Shown in pieces: positions 43,216-64,000 of a stretch of DNA of 64,000 nt. The DNA lies in the NCBI GenBank assembly GCA_030770425.1, contig JASJFT010000060.1, positions 1 to 64,000 of the forward strand. Reading direction: 5' to 3'. The position numbers and the translations under genes were made by a program. Below the pieces are notes generated by a model. The model saw only the letters and a program-made list of their open reading frames with translations, did not search any database and was not told the origin of the DNA. The stretch comes from Darksidea phi (lineage: Eukaryota > Ascomycota > Dothideomycetes > Pleosporales > Lentitheciaceae). Every line of letters starts with the position of its first letter. Position 1 is the stretch's first letter.

Positions 43216-46061
43216 TTAGGAGTTGCTCTCCTCGCTAAGATCCATGGCTTCTAGTTGCCATGCTACTAGAGATTCGCGAAACGATAGGATATTAGGATGC
43301 TGGGGCCCGAAGACCACTGACCCTATCTTGAGGCAATCTTCCATAAGAGAAATTGCTCTTCTTATTAAACCCTGAGCCTTCAGCGTAAATGCGAGGTTGT
43401 TCATGCTGGTCAGCGTGTCGGGATGGTCTGCTCCGAGCTTCGTCTTGCGAGTCTCCATCACTTGCACCTCCAACGCTTCGGCATCCTTCCACCGGCCTTG
43501 GTTCCTGTATGTCGACGCCAGGTTGGCCATACTGGTCAGCGTGTCGGGATGGTCTACTCCGAGCTTCGTCTTGCGAGTCTCTATCACTTGCACCTCCAGC
43601 GCTTCGGCATCCTTCCACCGGCCTTGGTCCCAGTATGTCGACGCCAGGTTGGCCATACTGGTCAGCGTATCGGGATGGTCTGCTCCGAGCTTCGTCTTGC
43701 GAGTCTCCATCACTTGTACGTCCAGCGCTTCGGCATCCTTCCACCGGCCTTGGTTCCTATATGTCGACGCCAGGTTGGCCATACTGGTCAGCGTGTCGGG
43801 ATGGTCTGCTCCGAGCTTCGTCTTGCGAGTCTCTATCACTTGCACGTCCAGCGCTTCGGCATCCTTCCACCGGCCTTGGTCCCAGTACGTCGACGCCAGG
43901 TTGGCCATGCTGGTCAGCGTATCGGGATGGTCTGCTCCGAGCTTCGTCTTGCGAGTCTCCAATACTTGTACGTCTAGCGCTTCGGCATCCTTCAACTGGC
44001 CTTGGTTCCAGTACGTCGACGCTAGGTTGGCCATACTGGTCAGCGTGTTGGGATAGTCTGCTCCGAGCTTCGTCTTACTCATCTCTATTACTTGCACCTC
44101 CAACGCTTCGGCATCCTTCCACCGGCCTTGGTTCCTGTATATCGACGCCAGGTTGGCCATACTAGTCAGCGTGTCGGGATGGTCTACTCCGAGCTTCGTC
44201 TTACTCGTCTCCATCACTTGCACAAACAGCGCTTCGGCTTCTGGCCATCGGCCCATTAAACGATACACTTCGCCTACCAATACCATGCTCCAAAGCGTAT
44301 ATTCGTGATCTTGGCCTAGTATCTTCCTCCTCGTCTTTGTAGATTGTAGTGACATCGCTTCTGCTTCAACCCAGTTTCCTGTCCTCAAAGCATACCATGC
44401 CGCCGTATATAGTAGTAAGGCCCAGTCCCTCAGGGTGTCTTCCCTCTCTGGCCGCTGTTCCGCAGCAGACTTGGCGTGCGCGAACAGCCCCTGGCACACC
44501 GCCCAATTTTCGTGATTTCCCGTTGGAAAGGCGGCACAGAGGTTGCTAACGAAACGCTCCTTCCACTGCTCCAGTTCATCGTGAACCTGCAGCCATTTCC
44601 GCATCGCGAGCTGCACCAGTCCGTGCATTTCAAAGCTTGTCTCATCTGTGTTCGCGGATATGAACGAGTAATCGCGCAACGTCTCGACGTCGTCTTCAAA
44701 CTCATCATCGCCCGCGCTAGACTGGGATGCGCTGTCTTGGTCCTCCCAGAGCTGCCGCTCGCTGCCGCGCTCGTCTTGCTCTTGCTGGGCGGGATCCTCT
44801 CCTGGCTGAGCCCGAAGCAGCTCCTCGGGTATTCCTTGCCGGTCGAAGAAGCTCATCAGCGAGAGCAAGCCGGCGGCGGATGGCCGTGTCTCCCGGATGT
44901 AGTCGAAAGAGATCTGCCATGTGATGATGATCGAGTTCTTCGCCTCATAGTCTCGACGATGTTGTCCTGCCTCGCTGTCGAGGAGAGTCGTTCTTTTGCG
45001 GTCGCTCTTTCGGAAGTCTGCGAGGTACTGCTGCACGGAGCAGCGAGGTGCTTTCCGGGCAATGTAAGCCGCCGCCTGCACGATGGCGAGCGGCATGTAC
45101 TCTAGCGCCGCGGTGAGTTCGTCGATGCCAACACAGTCCTTATCTTCTCCAAGCTTCTTCCTAAAGAGCGCACTGGCCTGTACCTCGTTCATAGGCTCTA
45201 CGCTGATCATGCAGCGCTTCTCCACAAGCTTTAGCGCCGCGTCTCGGCTACGTGTCGTGACGAGGACCGAGCCGCGCTCGCTGTATGGAATGTAAAAGCG
45301 CAGCGGCTTGGGGGCGCTCCTCGAGTTGGCTGCCTCGTCTCGCTGGGCAACCGGGACATCTACAAGAAAGCGAGCATCGTCCACGTTGTCGAGCACGAGC
45401 AGCCACCGATCCTTGCTACTGCACAGCCAGTCGTGCACTAGCCTAAAAATGTCTGCTTTGGGATCCTTCCGCCCAAAGATCTTGACGCGGTCGGCTATGT
45501 CGCGATAGCTCTGCTCAAACCTCGCTGCATTGCTGGCGTGCACCCAGAGCACCCACGTCTCCGCCGATCGGTCGCGCGTCTGGTACGCATACTCGATGGC
45601 GAGCTGCGACTTGCTTCACACGCGTCAGGCCGTGTCCACGCTCGAGTGTTCCTACTCACCCTACACCGCCAAGGCCGACGAGCGCGGCCCACGAGCCTGC
45701 CTTGACGCATCGCTGGACCTCATCGAGTATCGTTCCTCGTTCGACGAAGTCGGCGTCGCGGGGAAAGGGTATCGCGGCGGACGGGCGTGGTGGGGTCTCT
45801 GGTCGTTCTGGGTAGGGCTACCGTTAGCGCTGGCTCGGACCCTGCGGCAGATGCTCGGATCCTCCCGCGATGTAGCGTACAAGCTGCGATGGCAGCGACT
45901 TGCCTGGATAGTAGTTGTTCGTCTGGGCCTCTGTCTGGCGTTAGCACCGGAGGGTTAAGTGCGCATGGTGTAAGAGGCGGACCGATAATGATTCTATCAG
46001 CGATGTTACCGATATGGCCATAGTTGTTAATGGGAGGCATCTTAAATTGATTCTCTTGCAT
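43216..46061 (-). CDS. NB-ARC/TPR STAND (NLR-like) protein with N-terminal amyloid-like motif
   Basis: Modelled as four exons: 46061-45983, 45930-45881, 45817-45660 and 45613-43216 (894 aa). The introns are 52, 63 and 46 nt, with CTAAC, CTAAC and CTGAC branch sites. The third splits the P-loop codon. Order: motif INNYGHIGNIAD (residues 11-22) and QTNNY (29-33); a PERPETPP linker near 46; FVERG; P-loop GLGGVGKSQ (about 91-99); kinase-2 LLVLDNVDD (about 167-175); GSVLVTTRS (about 210-218); MPLA (about 269-272). The C-terminal half (about 500-870) holds TPRs of the kinesin-light-chain type, seven nearly identical. Such STAND ATPases oligomerise on ligand binding and trigger cell death or immunity through a partner. 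A divergent lipase gene with a matching motif lies upstream. The first two introns are inferred from frame and splice signals (the first has a weak GTCCGC donor); the ATPase and TPR parts are certain. Confidence 0.85.
43390..44270 (-). repeat. 126-bp tandem repeats encoding TPR units, 7 near-identical copies
   Basis: The landmark atccttcc recurs every 126 bp (for example 43,483 and 43,609). Each unit encodes a 42-residue TPR. Differences are confined to a few codons (Val/Ile/Met, Arg/Trp, Asn/Asp), so the copies are homogenised, as in fungal NLRs whose sensor repeats are reshuffled. Two diverged TPRs flank the array. Confidence 0.95.
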
Positions 46062-46746
46062 GCGCTTGTCGCGGTGAACGTGAAAAGGGATCAGGCTGCT
46101 TTAATGCGGGTGCCTACCCCGAGCAGCTGAGCTGTCCATCAAGGCTGAGCCCTTCTATTAATAGTCCATAGGCTGCGATGGACAGTAACGTGTTTACTAA
46201 GTGAGCGGCCACCCTCAAAATACACCAAAAAATCAAAAACCTATCTCTACAACTACCTATTAATAATCATTTAAATTTTTATAGAAGATAGATAGTATTT
46301 AGATAAAAAGGGTATTAAATTCTTAAAAGCTAAAAATTATTATTCCTTAAGATAACTTAAGATAACGCTATTTTAGCCCCCAAATTTAAGAAATCTTTAA
46401 TAACTTAAGTATTATTAATTTTTAGCTTTTAAGAATTTAATACCCTTTTTATCTAAATACTATCTATCTTCTATAAAAATTTAAATGATTATTAATAGGT
46501 AGTTGTAGAGATAGGTTTTCGATTTTTTGGTGTATTTTGAGGGTGGCCGCTCACTTAGAATGGCCGCTCACTTAGTAAACACGTTATATAACTAGTGCCT
46601 CCCGATTATGCAGGATACATGTCAGCTCAAGCTATATTGACAACCTCGACCTTCCAGTACACCTAGACATGGCGCCGTACGGGTTAACTACGTGGTATGA
46701 TGGTGAGAAAGCAGAAGTGGAGTGAGAGCTGTGACAATATATAGAC
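46062..46746. promoter_or_regulatory. Shared upstream region of the divergent NLR and lipase genes
   Basis: The two start codons are 685 bp apart on opposite strands. Most of the interval is a 397-bp MITE. The remainder is 126 bp on the NLR side and 160 bp on the lipase side. No specific promoter element can be named. Confidence 0.5.
46188..46584. mobile_element. Tc1/mariner-type MITE with long terminal inverted repeats
   Basis: The ends are ACGTGTTTACTAAGTGAGCG and its exact reverse complement. The inverted repeats extend about 150 bp inwards and leave a centre of about 75 bp. It is flanked by TA on both sides (46,186-46,187 and 46,585-46,586), the target duplication of Tc1/mariner elements. 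It encodes nothing. The right end carries a partial duplication of the ggccgctcacttag word. Little RIP is visible: the two arms still match almost perfectly. Confidence 0.9.
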
Positions 46747-47836
46747 ATGCTGTTCTATCCGGCTAACGTCAATAGCATCGTCTTCGTCCACGGTCTTCGC
46801 GGAGGAAGAGAGTCGACGTGGATGAAAGATGGGGTGGTCTGGCCGAAAGAGTTGCTGTCCAAGGATATTCCCAAAAGTCGTATCTTAAGCTTCGGCTACG
46901 ACTCTGGAATTGTGCATTCTGACACGGCAGAAGTCACTCAAGGCAGTCTTACAGACGATGCACGGCAGCTATGCAGCCTCCTCGATGATGCGCGTAAACA
47001 GACAAGCACTGTAAGATGTTCTGCTATATCCTACTAAGATTTTGAACTGTCTTTGCGGTGCTGTCAATGCTAACTGTTCCCTTAGGCTGATCGTCCTATC
47101 ATCGTGATTGGCCACAGCCTCGGCGGCCTCGTCCTCGCACAAGTGGTGTATGGTGGCAATGGGGCTACAGAAGGAGACAGCATCCACTCGATAGCGCAGC
47201 ACATCAAAGGAATGATATTCCTTGGTACACCTTTCTTTGGCTCCAAGATTGCCGGGTGGGGTGAAATCGTGCGGCGTATCTTCAGCCTCGTCCAGAAAAC
47301 GGACCAGAACACTTTGAAGAATCTCAAGTTAGACTCAGAGGAGCTCAAAGATCTTCGACTCGGGTTCCCAGACGTGATCCGTAAGCGGAATCAAGCTTCA
47401 GACAAGGTCGTCGTGGTCTTCTTTTTTGAGAAGAAGATGACTTACAAAGTGGTACGTTAGACGAAAGGCTCTAGCGCCGGATGCTAACGAGAACATAAAG
47501 TGGGTCGTCAAGGAAGAAGATGCGTCCTATCCTGGAGTCGGAGAAATCTTGCCCATGCAGGCAAACCATCTCGACATCTGCAAGTTCGATGATGCAGAAG
47601 ATGATGGATACAAGCAAGTGAGGGCGAAGATAAAGCAAGCTATGGAGGCGACTGATATCACTGAAACAAGCACGGTAAGAACAGCCCCGTTGCATGATTC
47701 AGTGAGCAAATTTATGGTAATGCGAGAACAGGGTAACAAAACCTACATTGTCAATAATGACGGCACGATCACGAATCTCGCTCAGGGCGATATGAGAATC
47801 GAGCAACAGACTAACAATTATGGGCAGACCAAGTAG
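46747..47836 (+). CDS. SesB-like serine lipase/esterase with C-terminal amyloid-like motif
   Basis: Three exons: 46747-47010, 47086-47451 and 47501-47836 (321 aa). Introns of 75 and 49 nt have GTAAGA/GTACGT donors and GCTAAC branch sites; both fall between codons. It is an alpha/beta hydrolase of the DUF676/SesB type: VFVHGLRGG at 12-20, nucleophile elbow GHSLGG at 97-102 with Ser99, then a FLGTPFFG block, and NHLDICKF carrying the probable catalytic His233. After the hydrolase fold comes a polar tail with VNNDGTITNLAQ and QTNNY in the last 29 residues. The same two blocks occur at the N-terminus of the divergent NLR. Lipase effectors of this kind are known partners of fungal NLRs. There is no signal peptide or membrane span, so it should be cytosolic until activated. 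Substrate unknown, presumably a lipid. Confidence 0.85.
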
Positions 47837-49494: not shown

Positions 49495-52400
49495 CTATAC
49501 AAGTTCAAGCTCGACTGCCTCTGCTCCCTCCACTCCCAAAGCCTCACCTTTCATGATGCCGTGCACATCTAGGAGGAAGTTAAGCGGATAACAAATAATG
49601 CAATGAGTGGCTAGACTTACAGGCATCCCCCACAATGCAAAACTTTGGCGGGGGCAACTGTTTTCGAAGTATGAACGGCACCTTGGCTCCTTGGAAAATG
49701 CACACAAGATCCCCCGTCTGCATGGTTAGAGGTCCGCGACCAATTCTCCCACGGTACGTGACGAAGAAGCTACTTTCGTAGGATAAGCATTCGCGCCGGC
49801 GAATATCACTTCCCAGTTCCTCATTATCTAGTGCTGCCGTCATTCCGGGGTCGTATATTCCATCACCGTTATCCTCGGTAGTGGGGTCGGAGGGCTCCTC
49901 TTTCACAGCGGCTTTACTGCTAGACCCTTCCGGGCCGTTTTCTTGACTGGGGCCTTTGACAGCGATTTTAAGCCCCATATGCAAACCAATCTCCGCCAAA
50001 GCGATAAGGTCTCTCTCTTCGCTTTTAGAGATCCGTGATTTGCCGGAGGAGAAAAATTGACCGAGGAACGATGTATTCGCAAAATCCAGTTGGAGTTCGC
50101 GCGGCGTGCGGGATTGTTGAATCCAACCGTCGTCCCAGAGCGATTGGTACAACAGCCAGTTATCCCTGGCCGAACTTGGCCACGGAGAGCTGGATACATA
50201 AAAAACAATGTCGACAAGCGTTCCTTTGACTGTGAGGACCGGTCCATCAATGGAAACAACGGGCGCTAACTGGCTGTTGCCTGTTGCATTGTAACCTCGT
50301 CGACCCCATTCCGTGAGTAGCACCGACATTGTATGAGGCCAACCGCCGGAATGCTTTACCGCCCAGTTTGGGAGCCAAGATGGCCATTGCTCCGAGAGTG
50401 CTTTTTCAAAACCCTCGTTACTCTTGTGCTTCCTGCAGAAACTGAGCACGTCGAGGTTTTGACTTTGGTGTAGTATGAGTCGGAACGCATCCTCAAACAC
50501 CGCTTTTGCCGACTTTTTGTAATCTGGCACTATTGAATCCGAGCCATAATTGGTCAAGCCGAGAAATGCATAGATGTAATCGTGTTGCTGCGTTGCCAAG
50601 CGATCTCTACCAAGCAAGATGGCATCAAGAAGCGAGACTTCTTCAGGACCGACGGCGTACTTTTGAGCCAGCTGGGTAGCCAATGGCTTCGTGTCGCCGA
50701 CATATCTTAGGCCAGTGAGACTTCGAATGATTCCATATTGGCCCAAGGTCGCCATAACAGCCTCCCAGCTAACAGACCAGGAGCCACAGCAAAATATGGC
50801 ATTCTGAGCAAGCAACACCTCTTGCACAATCCACACCCGCGTCCAGTACCGGCGACTAAGCAATTTGTCGAAAGCCAAGGCATGAGTTGCGGAAACTGCG
50901 GAGCAAACATGACCCCGGAGCGTCCCATACCATTGCCGAAATTTCGGACTGAAGCGAGATCTGTGCTTCTCAATCAGGTGTGCGTAATCGTAAAGGCATA
51001 GCGGGATGAGAGCGTGCCACGTTTCAGCATCCTCTTCGTCAATCCACATGAGGACTTGTCTTGCATCTCGATAGATAGACTGCATGAAGAGTACCTGGCG
51101 ACTTCTCTCGTCCACATTGCTCTGGTCGATACAGAGCGCATCAACCCACAACAGAGCCGGAAGATTTGGATCGCGTATCCGCCGCAACGCTGCAAAGAGG
51201 TTGGCGGTGACCTCCATCTTTCTTCCGTGCATATATATCCTGGGAGGGCCGGAAACAGTCCAGGGATACGAGTCGCTCGAGTCGTTCCAAACGTACGAAA
51301 GAGCGGTGAATGGAAGTCTCTTCACGGTCATGCTGGCTAAGATTGCGAAATCTGCATGAATCAAGTCGCAATGTATTTCTGAGTCTGGTGTGTTGTTAGG
51401 ATGGAGGAGTAGCATGCGGAATTCTTTTCTTGTCGTGCTTAGCGCCTCGTAGGAGTAACTTTCTCCTCCATTGGGCTTCCCATTATCGTCAGTTGGGTTG
51501 GGTTGGCTTTCGACTTGTTCGCTGGGACGCCCTGTTGGATACCAGTTGAGATCCTGTTTTGCCTTGGGTGAAGATGATATTGCACGCAGAACCTGCAGCC
51601 AGCACTGGAGAGACTCTGAGTCGTCGCACCACTCTCCCGTAGCCATATGCTCTTTCCCTTCTGTCCTCAAATCAAGTGATCTGATAAGACCGTCAAGATC
51701 CTTTCCGTTGGTTGCTTCCTCCAGGATTTGCAACGCCTCGCGCTTCGTCCGGTCGGGATCAGCTGATTGCGGACCGGTTGAACCGTCCGGTTCGTCCTCA
51801 ATGGATTCATTGTAGTTGTTGACCAGCATGGTTACCGCTTCTCTCGACAGTATGAGAGGACTCAGCTTATTGCTGTTCTTGGTAGCCTCCTGAAACTGCC
51901 GTAACAGAGTAGCATCTCTCTTCGGGGATGTGGCATGAACGCGTCCATGGTCTCCGGGTACTTTAAGCATCTCAGCTTGGCACCTCCGGATATGCCGGCC
52001 AGATAGCTTCAGGGACAGCTGATCAAGCAAGATTCCCATATTTGCGGCCACCTCAGCCGTAGCTAAGACTCGGCTCGTGTTGCTTTGTTCCTCGCGCAGA
52101 ATTCTACTCACTTCTCTGCTTAAGAGATCGATGAAGAGAGGGGATTCTTCTTCCTCTAGTGACAAGACATGGATTCCGCGAGGGATCCGTAATAAGAGAT
52201 GTCCACAAGCTTTCGGATACAGGACAGGGTTTTTCACGATCAGGGAGCCCTCCTCACATACCAGTCTAAAGAGCTCGGAGAAGGTTTTCCAATCCGCCGA
52301 AAGATTTCCGCACTGAACAGTGACCTCACAGTCTTGCATTAAATCCAGAAGTACCCATGCATAGTCCCACCATGGCCTTTGCAGTAGTTTCAACACTGCT

Positions 52401-53218
52401 TCCCACGAAGGCTGCAGTGAAGGAACATGGAAGAGCCCCTCACGGAGGCCATCAGCGCGAGGGTGAAAGCTTTCAAGTGCTTCGAGGAATTTGAAAGCCT
52501 GCCCCGAGGTGTTGGTCTCGCTTCCCAACCAGATGACGACTCGTTTGGCGAGAGCATATATTTGCCTCATATTGTCGACGATACGGCGTATCTCTCTGGC
52601 TGGACTGCCGCTTTCAGCGAAGAGAGTCCCAATCCAGAAAATCCTAGGCTCCGTTGAATGCCGTAGATGACGCAGCGCTAACTCGAGGCTTGCGCTAACT
52701 TCGACATTGGCGACTTCTTTATTCTGAACGTGTTTAATTTGCCCTACTTTCGAAGAGCTGTCGGGAGTGTAAGATAACACTTCGAAGCGTTTGTGACACT
52801 TTTCGAGAGACTCTTTGCCAACTGCGCACCATATTGCAGCCGATTTAGACTCTGATGGATACAGAACTAGGAGGCAAACGGTCTCAGATATTTCGCTGCC
52901 ATGGGATAGAATATCTTTTGAAGGTATGGTCCATGACTCGCTGATGCTCCAATGTGGAGGCGGCCAGGATAAATTGGTGGAAATGCTCTGCTGGGTGTGC
53001 CGAGAGAACCTTTCGGCCAAGAACACCAGACAGGCGCTCCATGCACTCTCGAGTCTCTCTAATTCGTCCAGAATATTGTACTGATCTCGTTGGCTTCCAA
53101 GGGTCTCGCCAAGGGTATTGAATACTTTGTCTCGCAGCAATGTCAACAGGAGCAGGGGCTCAAAGCCTTCTTTTGTCAACCCGTCATCTCCCGCACGAGG
53201 AACGTCTCGTCTTTCCAT
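49495..53218 (-). CDS. Large HET-domain protein with two HET-type regions
   Basis: Two exons: 53218-49621 and 49568-49495 (1,223 aa), with a 52-nt intron (GTAAGT donor, CTTAAC branch, CCTAG acceptor) splitting a Tyr codon. The last exon supplies the usual HET C-terminus GDAYVHGIMKGEA. The complete HET domain lies at about 590-820: ALSYVWND, LWVDALCIDQ, ERSRQV-FMQSIYRDA, RRYWTRVWIVQEV. An earlier segment at about 180-330 (FWIGTLFAESG, IYALAKRVVIWLGSE) is a degenerate HET-like copy whose usual DALCINQ is altered. HET proteins mediate heterokaryon incompatibility and cell death; the HET fold is TIR-like. I chose the ATG at 53,218 because the frame further upstream, to 53,404, lacks an ATG. An additional 5' exon cannot be excluded. 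Confidence 0.85.
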
Positions 53219-53981
53219 GTTAAGCTCGATCGAAAATATTCGCTGCCGTTTTTGTATCCGGCGTGATGCAGATCGATTTCGTGGGTATGACGGAGCTGTT
53301 CGTTGATGATTCGCAACACAAGAATTGTACCGTATATCTTCACTGCAGTTTGGCCCCGACAGCCGATGAGGCCAAATCTTCGATTCCCTTCTCTCTTGCT
53401 CCACCCCTACATACGACGCCCGATTTTGCGGGCTGGGCTACCTCCGCACCAGTCTTTACTCCCCGTGCGTATGTGCAAGAGTCGTGTTCATTGTCCATTG
53501 GCCATTTCATGTGATGTTGGCATTATAGAGGCGTCAAAGCTGACTCGGTGAAAAATTTTCACAATTGTGGTGCTGCAGAAAATGGACGAGGATGGCAGTC
53601 GCTTCCGAGTGAGGAGAATATGTGAGTTCTGGTTGGTGTATCATTCAATGTCATCTTTGCGGCGGCAAGGCAGTGCATTTGGTCGCTTAACTCTGTCCTT
53701 TGACCGGTGCGGGGACCGGTGCAGGCACAGGGGCATGGACCCGTAGCATGGGCGCCATTGGGCAATAGTGGGTGAGCCAGCTGTTCTAGTGGCGCATATC
53801 CCCGCCACATATCTTCGCAAGGACAGAACTTGCACATCCAACAGCAAGACGATGCACACTATATCTAGGCCCGTGGTGACATGCTCCCTACCCTTTCGTC
53901 ATTATTGCTTGAGGGATCAAGAGCTCTTAATCGCTCTATTGCTCGCACGTCAACAGGACAGGAGCAAGTCTGCTTCGAATT
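53219..53981. promoter_or_regulatory. Divergent upstream region of HET and AAA+ genes
   Basis: About 760 bp separate the two opposed starts. No gene, RNA or repeat is recognised. Short open frames here have no family resemblance. Confidence 0.4.
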
Positions 53982-62270: not shown

Positions 62271-63829
62271 CTAATGTCTAACGGCTATCATGTGCTCGTT
62301 CGCTGCACTCTGTGTATAAAACTTCTTGGCACACGTCTTACAGGAGATATTAGGGTTTCCATGTCCAGTGGCTGCCATGTGCTCGTTTGCTGCGCTCTGT
62401 GTATAAAACTTCTTAGCGCACGTCTTACAGGAGATATTAGGGTTCCCATGTCCAGTGGCTGCCATGTGCTCGTCTGCTGCGCTCTGTGTATAAAACTTCT
62501 TGGCGCACGTCTTACAGGAGATATTAGGGCTCCCATGTCCAGTGGCTGTCATGCGCTGGTTTGCTGCTTGACCTGATCTGAATTTCTCATCGGAGGTTCG
62601 ACACTTAAACCGTGACCAGTGCTTTTTAACCTCCATGTGTCGATTCGCTGCTTCCTCTAATCGGAATTTTTCGTCACAGGTTTGGCATCCGAATTGTAGT
62701 CCGTTTCTTTTGTACTGGTCTAGACTATTACTCCGTACGTCGAGAGGCGGAGCAGTAGCACGCTCTTCTGAAAGTCCCTTTATCTCTTTCTGAAGTCCTG
62801 CTGCAGCGTCAGCGCCGATGCATCACCAGGTAGAAGACAACTGCTACACTAACCAACTGTCTCTGGGATCGCTTCTTCCACGGTGTGAGTCTCGGCCATC
62901 TCTGCTGCCGGTATGACCGACAGCAGCTCCTTCGCATACGCCGATGCCGTCCCCGCCGCGTATGCTTGCCACTGCTTGTTCTTGTGCGAGTCGGCGTAGT
63001 CGCAGATGCCGCGGATCACAAGACACGGGAAGCTGTTCATCAAACCTGCCGCCTCCATCTCGAAGCAGAGCACGCCGCCAAGCTCCCTTCTCAGCTTGTC
63101 CCGTGTGTGCCCGTCCCTTATAACCTGGTTACCCGACGCGATTGTCCCGTAATGCACTACTACGTTCTCTCCTTTTCCACGCTGCGGTCGCGCTTGCTGT
63201 CTATCGGCGCTGCAGTGCTCGCACGTCTGACCGCCTTCGTGGTCGTAGGCAGCCTCGAATAGAACGTCACGGCCCGTCTTTATGCGCTGGAATTTAGGGA
63301 TACGTTCAAGCTTCGAGACGTACTCCAAGAGCCTACTTCTACCTCGCAACTTGTTTGCGCGTAGTCGTGCTACTGCTGCAAGCAGTATCTGCGGCGGAGA
63401 GTTCAGCAATCCCGTCCGATCAAAGCCGCTCGGTGTTGACTTTCCAGCGTCATACTGTACCACTCCGGCGAAGGTTTGATGCGGCTGGCTGACTACCACG
63501 TCTCCGAGCCGGATGTCGACCTCTGCGCTGGGAACGCCGCCTCCGATACCAACCATTAGTCCGAACCGAATCCCCTTAAATGTCGCCCTCATCTGTGTCG
63601 TTACGGCCGTTGCCGGGTTATTACCAATCCGGCCAGCTGGTAGGCACACAATCGCAACGTTGTGACCGCCAATCGATCCCAGAGCGTACAGGTTCTCGTC
63701 GTTATCGCCGAGGTCGCGCTCAAGGTCGTCGTGTTCTTCATCCAGCATCTCCTGCGCTGCCGCCAACTCGACGGGCAGCGCGCACACCCATCCTACGGTG
63801 TAGTCTTCACGGCGGAGTTGGCGCACCAT
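62271..63829 (-). CDS. Nucleoside-phosphorylase (PNP_UDP) domain fused to C2H2 zinc-finger repeats
   Basis: Two exons: 63829-62854 and 62800-62271 (501 aa). The 53-nt intron (GTTAGT donor, GCTGAC branch, CTGCAG acceptor) removes an in-frame stop. Residues 1-310 are the PNP_UDP_1-like domain of fungal STAND proteins: YTVGWVCALPVE, VGIGGG, LGDVVVS, the YDHEGG-TCEHC insert, GTIASGNQV, FEMEAAG and IRGICDYADSHKN. Next comes a short helical linker (about 325-357), then five C-x2-C-x12-H-x5-H finger units of 29 residues; the second has lost a Cys and a His. In fungal NLRs the PNP domain is usually an N-terminal effector and the repeats sense ligand; here no NB-ARC or NACHT module lies between them. 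The finger ORF has no start of its own and joins in frame, which supports the fusion. If the intron is not used, the protein ends after 326 residues. Confidence 0.75.
62295..62560 (-). repeat. 87-bp tandem repeats encoding C2H2 fingers
   Basis: Three consecutive units encode CKTCAKKFYTQSAA followed by D/N-EHM. The units differ at only a few bases and are 29 codons long, so the array is recently expanded or homogenised. Confidence 0.9.
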
Positions 63830-64000
63830 TCGCAGTATTTACAAAGGGGGCAGGAGGGGAGGGGCGGTGCTGGAGAGATGCTCGTAGAGAGAGAGTGTGT
63901 GTGTGTATGTGAAGTGGTCGTGGGCTGGCAGCTCTGAGAGTCCTGGTAGCGATGTGCTGTTGCCGCTCGGCCTTGTGACCTGCGTTGCAGCTGGCTGACT
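63830..64000. promoter_or_regulatory. Upstream region of the PNP-C2H2 gene
   Basis: It holds a purine-rich run (63,845-63,885) and a short (GT)n tract at about 63,895-63,910. No gene start is visible before the window ends. Confidence 0.35.

What the first reader, a model, noticed from the sequence alone, without database searches (positions are those of the whole stretch)
43216..47836. Divergent NLR and lipase genes share a two-block Asn/Gly-rich motif: candidate amyloid signalling pair
Seen: the NLR N-terminus (residues 11-33) reads INNYGHIGNIAD ... QTNNY; the lipase C-terminus reads VNNDGTITNLAQ ... QTNNY. In the first block 6 of 12 positions are identical and two are conservative; the second block is identical over five residues; the spacing differs by one residue. 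Known: in fungi, NLRs with an N-terminal amyloid motif activate a neighbouring effector with the same motif at its C-terminus (HET-S/NWD2; the sigma motif of the SesA/SesB locus of Nectria, where SesB is a lipase). Inferred: this is a sigma-like or new motif family in a complete two-gene system.
Basis: partly seen in the sequence, partly recalled or inferred. Interest (0 to 1): 0.88.

Follow-up and report, generated by a model that had tools for sequence, protein, structure and literature searches.

The report
Fungal receptor–lipase pair sharing signalling motif
Two neighbouring fungal genes, an immune-type receptor and a lipase, carry the same short motif at the ends where other fungal receptors hand on a death signal by amyloid templating, and the motif matches none of the motif families that could be tested.

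Summary
NLR residues 11-33 and lipase residues 283-306 align at score 52 (0 of 20,000 shuffles reach it; 116 other NLR N-termini reach at most 28). A profile of 13 other fungal lipase tails picks out 5 of 121 NLR N-termini (the window's and four from other Pleosporales; E 2e-11 to 5e-7, next 0.3); a profile of those four puts the window lipase first of 120. The tail is conserved while the linker before it is variable. Motif-bearing NLRs do not form one clade (p-AU 2.5e-6); their nearest relatives mostly carry the PP amyloid motif. In Periconia both genes come from contigs of one length, probably one contig. Pfam's sigma, PP and HET-s models do not match. Two gene-model corrections: NLR intron 2 is a 96-nt GC-AG intron, lipase intron 1 is 54 nt. 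Best reading: a lipase-linked fungal amyloid signalling motif outside the families I could test, possibly identical with the published unassigned motif 'NLR34', whose profile I could not see. Amyloid formation, lipase activity and cell death are inferred, not shown.

The parts
43216..45613 (-). NLR exon 4: NB-ARC, DUF7779 and TPR region up to the stop
   Evidence: ORF; Pfam NB-ARC, DUF7779, TPR
43394..44238 (-). TPR array, 126-nt unit, 6.7 copies, 90% matches
45614..45659 (-). NLR intron 3 (46 nt, GTGAGT...AG), inside the P-loop sequence
45660..45807 (-). NLR exon 3 (from ERPETPPRPSAAIPF to the P-loop)
45808..45903 (-). NLR intron 2, corrected: GC-AG, 96 nt, donor CCAG|GCAAGT; joins NNYYP to ERPETPP as in related NLRs
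45904..45930 (-). NLR exon 2, second half of the motif (EAQTNNYYP)
45931..45982 (-). NLR intron 1 (52 nt, donor GTCCGC, weak), splits the motif
   Evidence: homology on both sides
45983..46061 (-). NLR exon 1 from ATG (MQENQFKMPPINNYGHIGNIADRII); an internal ATG at 46040 is an alternative start
45911..46031 (-). NLR motif, residues 11-33, INNYGHIGNIADRIIIEAQTNNY (interrupted by intron 1)
46186..46586 (.). Foldback MITE-like element between the two genes (158-nt inverted arms 97% complementary; outer 26-nt arms); not part of the system
46669..46721 (+). Lipase exon 1 (MAPYGLTTWYDGEKAEV...)
46722..46775 (+). Lipase intron 1, corrected, 54 nt
   Evidence: consensus of orthologues
46776..47010 (+). 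Lipase exon 2
47086..47451 (+). Lipase exon 3, with the nucleophile elbow GHSLGG
47501..47674 (+). Lipase exon 4, with the conserved His (ANHLDICKF) and the start of the linker
47732..47836 (+). Lipase exon 5: the C-terminal tail is encoded by its own last exon
47750..47821 (+). Lipase motif, residues 283-306, VNNDGTITNLAQGDMRIEQQTNNY

Best explanation
A two-gene receptor/effector system of the fungal amyloid-signalling kind that uses a motif family of its own, consensus [IV]NNxGxIxNxAxxD[IM]xIxxQTxNY. Proposed mechanism: the NB-ARC/TPR receptor oligomerises when its near-identical TPR repeats bind a non-self or damage cue; its clustered N-terminal motifs fold into a short cross-beta (beta-arch) core; this core templates the normally unstructured C-terminal tail of the SesB-like alpha/beta-hydrolase; the polymerised lipase then acts on membrane lipids and kills or arrests the cell. 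Shown here: gene structures (without transcripts), homology of the two motifs, conservation of the tail, its presence on several separate NLR backbones, alpha/beta-hydrolase fold, and a low-confidence motif in both predicted models. Inferred: ligand, oligomerisation, amyloid, templating, lipase activity, cell death.
For: Reciprocal profile test: 13 lipase tails (window left out) hit 5 of 121 NLR N-termini at E 2.2e-11 to 4.6e-7, next 0.3, best reversed control 0.13; four NLR motifs (window left out) put the window lipase first of 120 tails, 2.2e-11, and find 24 of 120 at E<=1e-3 with 0 of 120 reversed. Pairwise score 52 against at most 28 for 116 other NLRs. In 14 lipases the tail is conserved (mean entropy 0.76 bits) after a variable linker (1.55), with alternating fixed and free positions N-x-G-x-I. 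Columns invariant over 7 lipase and 5 NLR copies are N, I and Q. Periconia lipase P0002 and NLR P0124 both list a contig of 27,809 bases. Motif NLRs are not one clade: 3 changes, p-AU 2.5e-6 (51 rows picked after seeing the 119-row tree). Models: hydrolase core confident, tail 273-307 at 10-residue mean pLDDT 44-51; NLR residues 1-29 below 50. The same genome carries a HeLo/PP pair and a SesA/sigma cluster, so the fungus uses this kind of signalling.
Against: No amyloid evidence; no amyloid predictor was run. In Lentithecium and Sporormia the motif NLR and motif lipase come from contigs of different lengths, and no lipase was listed for Pyrenochaeta, so linkage is seen in 2 of the 4 fungi in which both were found (window included). 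Same-species motif pairs do not score above cross-species pairs. The window NLR copy is the weakest of the five and lacks one residue; when the profile is widened to 49 lipase tails it drops to E 0.017. A MITE-like element fills about 400 of the 607 bases between the start codons and could disturb expression. The concatenated-variant search found only P0124, one of its own sources, because a 25-residue motif rarely reaches E 10 in that database. The AU test assumes a group named before the tree was seen; I had seen the tree.
Confidence: 0.72

Rival explanations
1. The motif is an already catalogued but unnamed amyloid-like motif, NLR34 of Wojciechowski et al. 2022 (28 aa, 29 ascomycete NLRs, no effector found). 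The window would then supply the missing effector for a known orphan motif.
For: Table 1 of PMC9815663 (section read): NLR34, length 28, Ascomycota, 0 neighbours, 0 effectors. Length and taxon fit.
Against: Their effector search included Abhydrolase_6, DUF676 and PGAP1, which this lipase matches above cut-off, yet NLR34 has no effector hits. The logo and data files could not be read.
Confidence: 0.2
2. A divergent sigma motif: the pair is a SesB/NLR system of the Nectria sigma type.
For: The lipase is related to proteins named SesB (P0103, 34% identity, E 4.8e-29); a sigma tail of the same genome holds INNYG; a Fusarium lipase relative (P0023) has a tail in which this motif precedes a partial NACHT_sigma match.
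Against: NACHT_sigma finds the SesA tails of this genome but nothing in the window motif up to E 10; motif profiles score the two sigma tails at E 1.2-25 over short stretches; about 24 aa in a single copy, not a threefold repeat of about 40 aa (PMC5485727). The strict sigma patterns GxGxQFN and GGTQNINT are absent too, but they also miss the genome's real sigma tails, so that test says little.
Confidence: 0.06
3. The shared motif is a non-amyloid homotypic or heterotypic docking peptide (for example both bind a third protein or a membrane), so signalling works by recruitment and not by templated polymerisation.
For: No test here separates docking from amyloid. Alternating conservation fits any beta-strand addition.
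Against: Position on both proteins, Asn/Gly/Gln content and occurrence on NLR backbones whose relatives carry PP are those of known amyloid motifs (PMC3321046 and PMC9815663, passages and sections).
Confidence: 0.15
4. Chance or composition: two Asn-rich ends that look alike, in genes that are neighbours by accident.
For: The shuffle maximum (51) lies close to the observed 52.
Against: Profiles built without the window find both ends at E 5e-7 and 2e-11; the two genes appear linked in Periconia too.
Confidence: 0.02

Closest known systems
sesA/sesB/het-eN sigma locus of Nectria haematococca (PMC3321046, passages; PMC516043, search listing only)
   Same: SesB-like lipase near an NLR, common motif at lipase C-terminus and NLR N-terminus
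   Different: Motif not matched by the sigma model, single copy; no SesA-like gene recognised by eye among the ORFs (not searched); NLR is NB-ARC/TPR, Nectria het-eN is NACHT/ankyrin
PP motif systems (PNT1/HELLP/SBP, PMC5485727 abstract and one section; Pfam PF17046 'Ses_B' is the PP motif, misnamed, per PMC12261475 passages)
   Same: A lipase can be the effector; PNT1 is PP-NB-ARC-TPR; closest NLR backbones in the tree mostly carry a PP-type start
   Different: No GxQxG core and no PF17046 match, while both find the PP pair of this genome
HET-S/NWD2 and HRAM motifs (PMC3321046, passages)
   Same: Divergent gene pair, NLR with one motif copy at the extreme N-terminus
   Different: Effector is a lipase, not HeLo; no Pfam HET-s match; HRAM key positions absent by a strict pattern; one copy at the effector, not two
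PUASM (PNP_UDP-associated) and GDQN motif pairs (PMC9815663, PMC12261475)
   Same: Newer fungal families found by the same terminal-pair logic
   Different: Published patterns absent; effectors are PNP_UDP and SesA proteins

Membership tests
Fungal NLR/effector amyloid-signalling pair (general kind) | NLR with a short motif upstream of the NB domain instead of an effector domain | tested here: met
   NLR residues 1-35 precede ERPETPP and NB-ARC, and residues 1-60 match no Pfam family
Fungal NLR/effector amyloid-signalling pair (general kind) | Neighbouring effector with a homologous C-terminal motif | tested here: met
Fungal NLR/effector amyloid-signalling pair (general kind) | Pair linked in other species | tested here: inconclusive
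   Periconia on contigs of the same length; Lentithecium and Sporormia on contigs of different length; no lipase listed for Pyrenochaeta
Fungal NLR/effector amyloid-signalling pair (general kind) | Motif forms amyloid and cross-seeds | not testable with these tools
   needs peptides or an in vivo assay
SesB-like lipase | Alpha/beta-hydrolase related to SesB proteins, Ser and His at the usual catalytic places | tested here: met
   Abhydrolase_6, PGAP1 and DUF676 above cut-off; P0103, P0108, P0109 named SesB; Ser107 of GHSLGG and His241 (P0002 numbering) invariant in 48 relatives; Foldseek carboxylesterases E 3.5e-9, TM about 0.45. Activity not tested
sigma motif | Pfam NACHT_sigma; threefold GxGxQFNxx / GGTQNINT submotifs | tested here: not met
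   NACHT_sigma silent on the window motif, finds SesA tails on C423. Strict submotif patterns absent but fail their positive control
PP motif | NxGxQxGxN core; Pfam PF17046 | tested here: not met
   with positive controls from C54
HET-s / HRAM motif | 21-residue repeat with N1, N18, G17 and hydrophobic 3, 6, 14, 16; Pfam HET-s models | tested here: not met
   Pfam models silent; strict pattern 0 of 19 (no positive control). The HRAM1-5 profiles were not available
PUASM 1 | FxGxGxQxxGxGxF, PNP_UDP effector | tested here: not met
   pattern 0 of 19 (no positive control); effector is a lipase
PUASM 2 and GDQN | PUASM2 profile; GDQN pattern | tested here: inconclusive
   GDQN pattern 0 of 19 (no positive control); PUASM2 profile not available
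NLR34 of PMC9815663 | match to the NLR34 profile | not testable with these tools
   profile and logo are in figures and data files not held

The most novel reading that the evidence does not exclude
A lipase-dedicated amyloid signalling channel: a subfamily of SesB-like lipases across the Pezizomycotina (49 of 120 tails after iteration, including Fusarium, Xylaria, Aspergillus and Penicillium) carries its own beta-arch motif, and in Pleosporales this motif has moved onto NLRs of the PP type on several occasions, re-wiring existing receptors from PP effectors to the lipase and giving one genome at least three separate amyloid channels (PP, sigma and this one).
Probability: 0.5. Interest if true: 0.72.

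Novelty: new variant of a known kind. Interest (0 to 1): 0.6.

Why it matters
Few fungal amyloid signalling families are described (HRAM, sigma, PP, PUASM1-2 and the GDQN pair, per PMC12261475, passages). A motif conserved over a lipase subfamily, and found on NLR backbones whose relatives carry PP, would show how fungi re-wire immune receptors by exchanging a piece of about 25 residues, and gives concrete peptides with which to ask whether such channels are insulated from one another.

Tried and rejected
Chance similarity: rejected. Sigma, PP, HET-s/HRAM, PUASM, GDQN membership: tested, not met, as far as models or patterns were available; of the pattern tests only the PP patterns NxGxQxGxN and GxQxG had a working positive control, the sigma patterns and the full PP pattern failed theirs. 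One search showed only 25 of 27 families for the NLR, so I rescanned its first 60 residues (none). Species-specific co-variation of the two motifs: not found; same-species scores are the row maximum only for the window. Other copies in the same genome: single-sequence searches with each motif found only the two known places; a profile search of the genome was not possible, so weak copies are not excluded. More NLR partners by a concatenated-variant query: only P0124, itself a source of the query, so uninformative. Random-window control: spoiled by family members, not used. My first lipase intron 1 and the short second NLR intron: dropped for homology. A literature search for the string QTNNY gave six papers, all on the bacterial adhesin FimH as far as the listing shows.
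Full report
WHAT IS THERE. Two divergently transcribed genes have 607 bases between their start codons. On the minus strand is an NLR of 883 aa (exons 46061-45983, 45930-45904, 45807-45660, 45613-43216) with NB-ARC, DUF7779 and a TPR array of 6.7 copies of a 126-nt unit, 90% matches. On the plus strand is an alpha/beta-hydrolase of 310 aa (exons 46669-46721, 46776-47010, 47086-47451, 47501-47674, 47732-47836). The genome is held as 51.35 Mb in 477 contigs, unnamed. Close named relatives of both genes are from Periconia and Lentithecium, both Pleosporales, so a pleosporalean fungus is my inference.

GENE MODELS. Four NLR relatives read ...NNYYPERPETPPRPSAVIPF or close variants. The window gives the same join through a GC-AG intron of 96 nt with the donor CCAG|GCAAGT. 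Lipase intron 1 was likewise set by the majority consensus of orthologues, MxxYGLTxWHDGxKAEVDIVFVHGLRGG. NLR intron 1 has a weak donor (GTCCGC) and splits the motif; a Pyrenochaeta NLR (P0121) begins MQENQFKMSPINNYGSIGNIAQGD, close to the window exon, which supports exon 1.

THE MOTIF MATCH. Smith-Waterman score 52 between the lipase tail and the NLR N-terminus; 0 of 20,000 shuffles of both reach it (maximum 51); of the 120 listed NLR relatives (first 60 residues), four score 64-73 and the other 116 at most 28. A profile of 13 lipase tails, window left out, hits 5 of 121 NLR N-termini: P0124 2.2e-11, P0120 4.1e-9, P0190 5.6e-8, P0121 8.6e-8, window 4.6e-7; the next is 0.3 and the best reversed sequence 0.13 (E-values are for 121 sequences). 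The 13 were picked by eye from the top 27 lipase hits; P0011 and P0015, which have similar tails, hits with more diverged tails (P0017, P0019-P0026) and hits without a tail (P0006, P0013, P0016) were left out. A profile of the four NLR motifs puts the window lipase first of 120 tails (2.2e-11) and finds 24 of 120 at E<=1e-3, none reversed. Iterated over lipase tails, the family covers 49 of 120, among them Fusarium, Xylaria, Aspergillus and Penicillium; the best reversed tail lies between E 0.0047 and 0.021 over the four rounds, and in the last round the window NLR has E 0.017 and the other four 4e-6 to 3e-3. Only the best 120 of 341 NLR hits were listed, so the number of motif NLRs is a lower bound.

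CONSTRAINT. In an alignment of 14 lipases (the 13 plus the window; three are partial) the hydrolase core (15-260) has mean column entropy 0.43 bits, the linker (272-280) 1.55 and the motif (281-307) 0.76. Within the motif N285, G287, I289, Q294, I299 and Q302 are invariant while D286, T288 and R298 vary freely. The columns invariant over seven lipase and five NLR copies are N, I and Q. The tail is encoded by the last exon alone.

EVOLUTION. On a tree of the nucleotide-binding region of 51 NLRs (picked from the 119-row tree) the five motif bearers need three changes; holding them together costs 163 log-likelihood units, p-AU 2.5e-6. That p-value supposes the group was named before the tree was seen; I had seen. 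Window, P0120 and P0124 form one clade beside P0122, P0123 and P0131, which start with a PP-type motif; P0190 is sister to three PP-type NLRs; P0121 lies in a third group. The PP labels are a crude regular expression (90 PP, 24 other, 5 motif of 119; two of 121 NLRs dropped), and it misses some starts that look PP-like by eye, such as P0126 and P0174. So the motif sits on several separate backbones, as expected of an exchangeable signalling module. Three changes may also be one gain and two losses.

PAIRING. Periconia lipase P0002 and NLR P0124 both list a contig of 27,809 bases, so very probably one contig. Lentithecium (P0007; P0120) and Sporormia (P0014, P0015; P0190) have both partners, but on contigs of different lengths; for the Pyrenochaeta NLR P0121 no lipase was listed. 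All four named genera are Pleosporales. Same-species motif pairs do not score above cross-species pairs. Conservation of the motif on both sides is thus shown better than gene adjacency.

STRUCTURE. The model of P0002 (48-row alignment) is an alpha/beta-hydrolase, mean pLDDT 79, with the tail (273-307) at 10-residue means of 44-51 and no secondary structure; Foldseek finds carboxylesterases and lipases (best E 3.5e-9, TM about 0.45). The NLR model (P0124) has residues 1-29 below 50. Low confidence fits, but does not show, a tail that folds only on templating.

COMPARISON. Fungal families named in PMC12261475 (passages read): HRAM, sigma, PP, PUASM1-2, plus the GDQN pair reported there. PMC9815663 (abstract, passages, sections 19, 24 and 48 read; supplements not available) lists 16 NLR motifs, including NLR34, unassigned. 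Pfam has no match at all in NLR residues 1-60 up to E 10 and none in the lipase tail, while in the same call it finds PP in the C54 pair and sigma in the C423 SesA proteins (genome-wide searches likewise do not list the window). Published patterns are absent in 19 motif sequences, but the sigma patterns also missed the real sigma tails, so for sigma I rely on the Pfam model and on the motif profiles. PMC3321046 (passages) describes the sigma locus, where the NLR motif was first missed because a 5' intron went unnoticed, a risk here too. PMC5485727 was read in abstract and one section; PMC4986451, PMC12881547, PMC12258605 and PMC8086366 in passages. I found no paper that describes this motif with searches; the library holds open-licence papers only.

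SAME GENOME. A PP pair lies on C54: a HeLo-domain protein (E 1.7e-52) with a C-terminal PP motif beside an NB-ARC/TPR-type NLR with an N-terminal one. A sigma cluster lies on C423: two SesA proteins (E about 2e-31) with sigma tails (one over, one slightly under the cut-off), an NPHP3_N/ankyrin gene and a DUF676-type lipase whose downstream sigma match is weak (E 0.64). The window pair would be a further channel in one fungus.

INTERGENIC ELEMENT. A foldback element fills 46186-46586; 84 matches, many counted twice because it is palindromic, occur in the genome. It is a MITE-like insertion and not part of the system, but it sits in the shared promoter region.

VERDICT. Observation confirmed with two gene-model corrections; interpretation supported for the kind of system, not for sigma membership. 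The step from shared motif to amyloid is inference.

Noticed in passing
window 49580-53437, minus strand: Large HET-domain protein (PF06985, E 4e-43, two matching stretches), an incompatibility-type gene about 1.7 kb beyond the lipase.
   Followed up: partly
window 62849-63838, minus strand: PNP_UDP-domain protein (PF01048, E 2.9e-14), another domain type known from fungal NLR effectors; no NB domain recognised by eye in the neighbouring ORFs, not searched.
   Followed up: partly
window 46186-46586: Foldback MITE-like element with many genomic copies, between the two divergent promoters.
   Followed up: yes
P0023 (Fusarium oxysporum lipase): Tail appears composite: this motif followed by a partial NACHT_sigma match; could mark a switch between motif families.
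   Followed up: no
L035 (G000:C423:302500-312400) and L034 (G000:C54:34500-42500): Sigma cluster with two SesA genes, an ankyrin NTPase gene and a lipase; PP pair of a HeLo protein and an NLR.
   Followed up: partly
P0085, P0088, P0095, P0103, P0108, P0109 (lipases): More distant SesB-like lipases share, by eye, another tail pattern (about NxGxxTGxxxGTxxxAxxL), perhaps a further signalling motif.
   Followed up: no
P0006 (Periconia lipase): Database model lacks the tail, probably because the last intron is read through, as a naive model of the window gene would do; tails may be under-annotated.
   Followed up: no
window 62271-62822, minus strand: Repetitive frame that looks zinc-finger-like by eye (repeats of CKTCAKKFYTQSAANEHMAATGH).
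   Followed up: no
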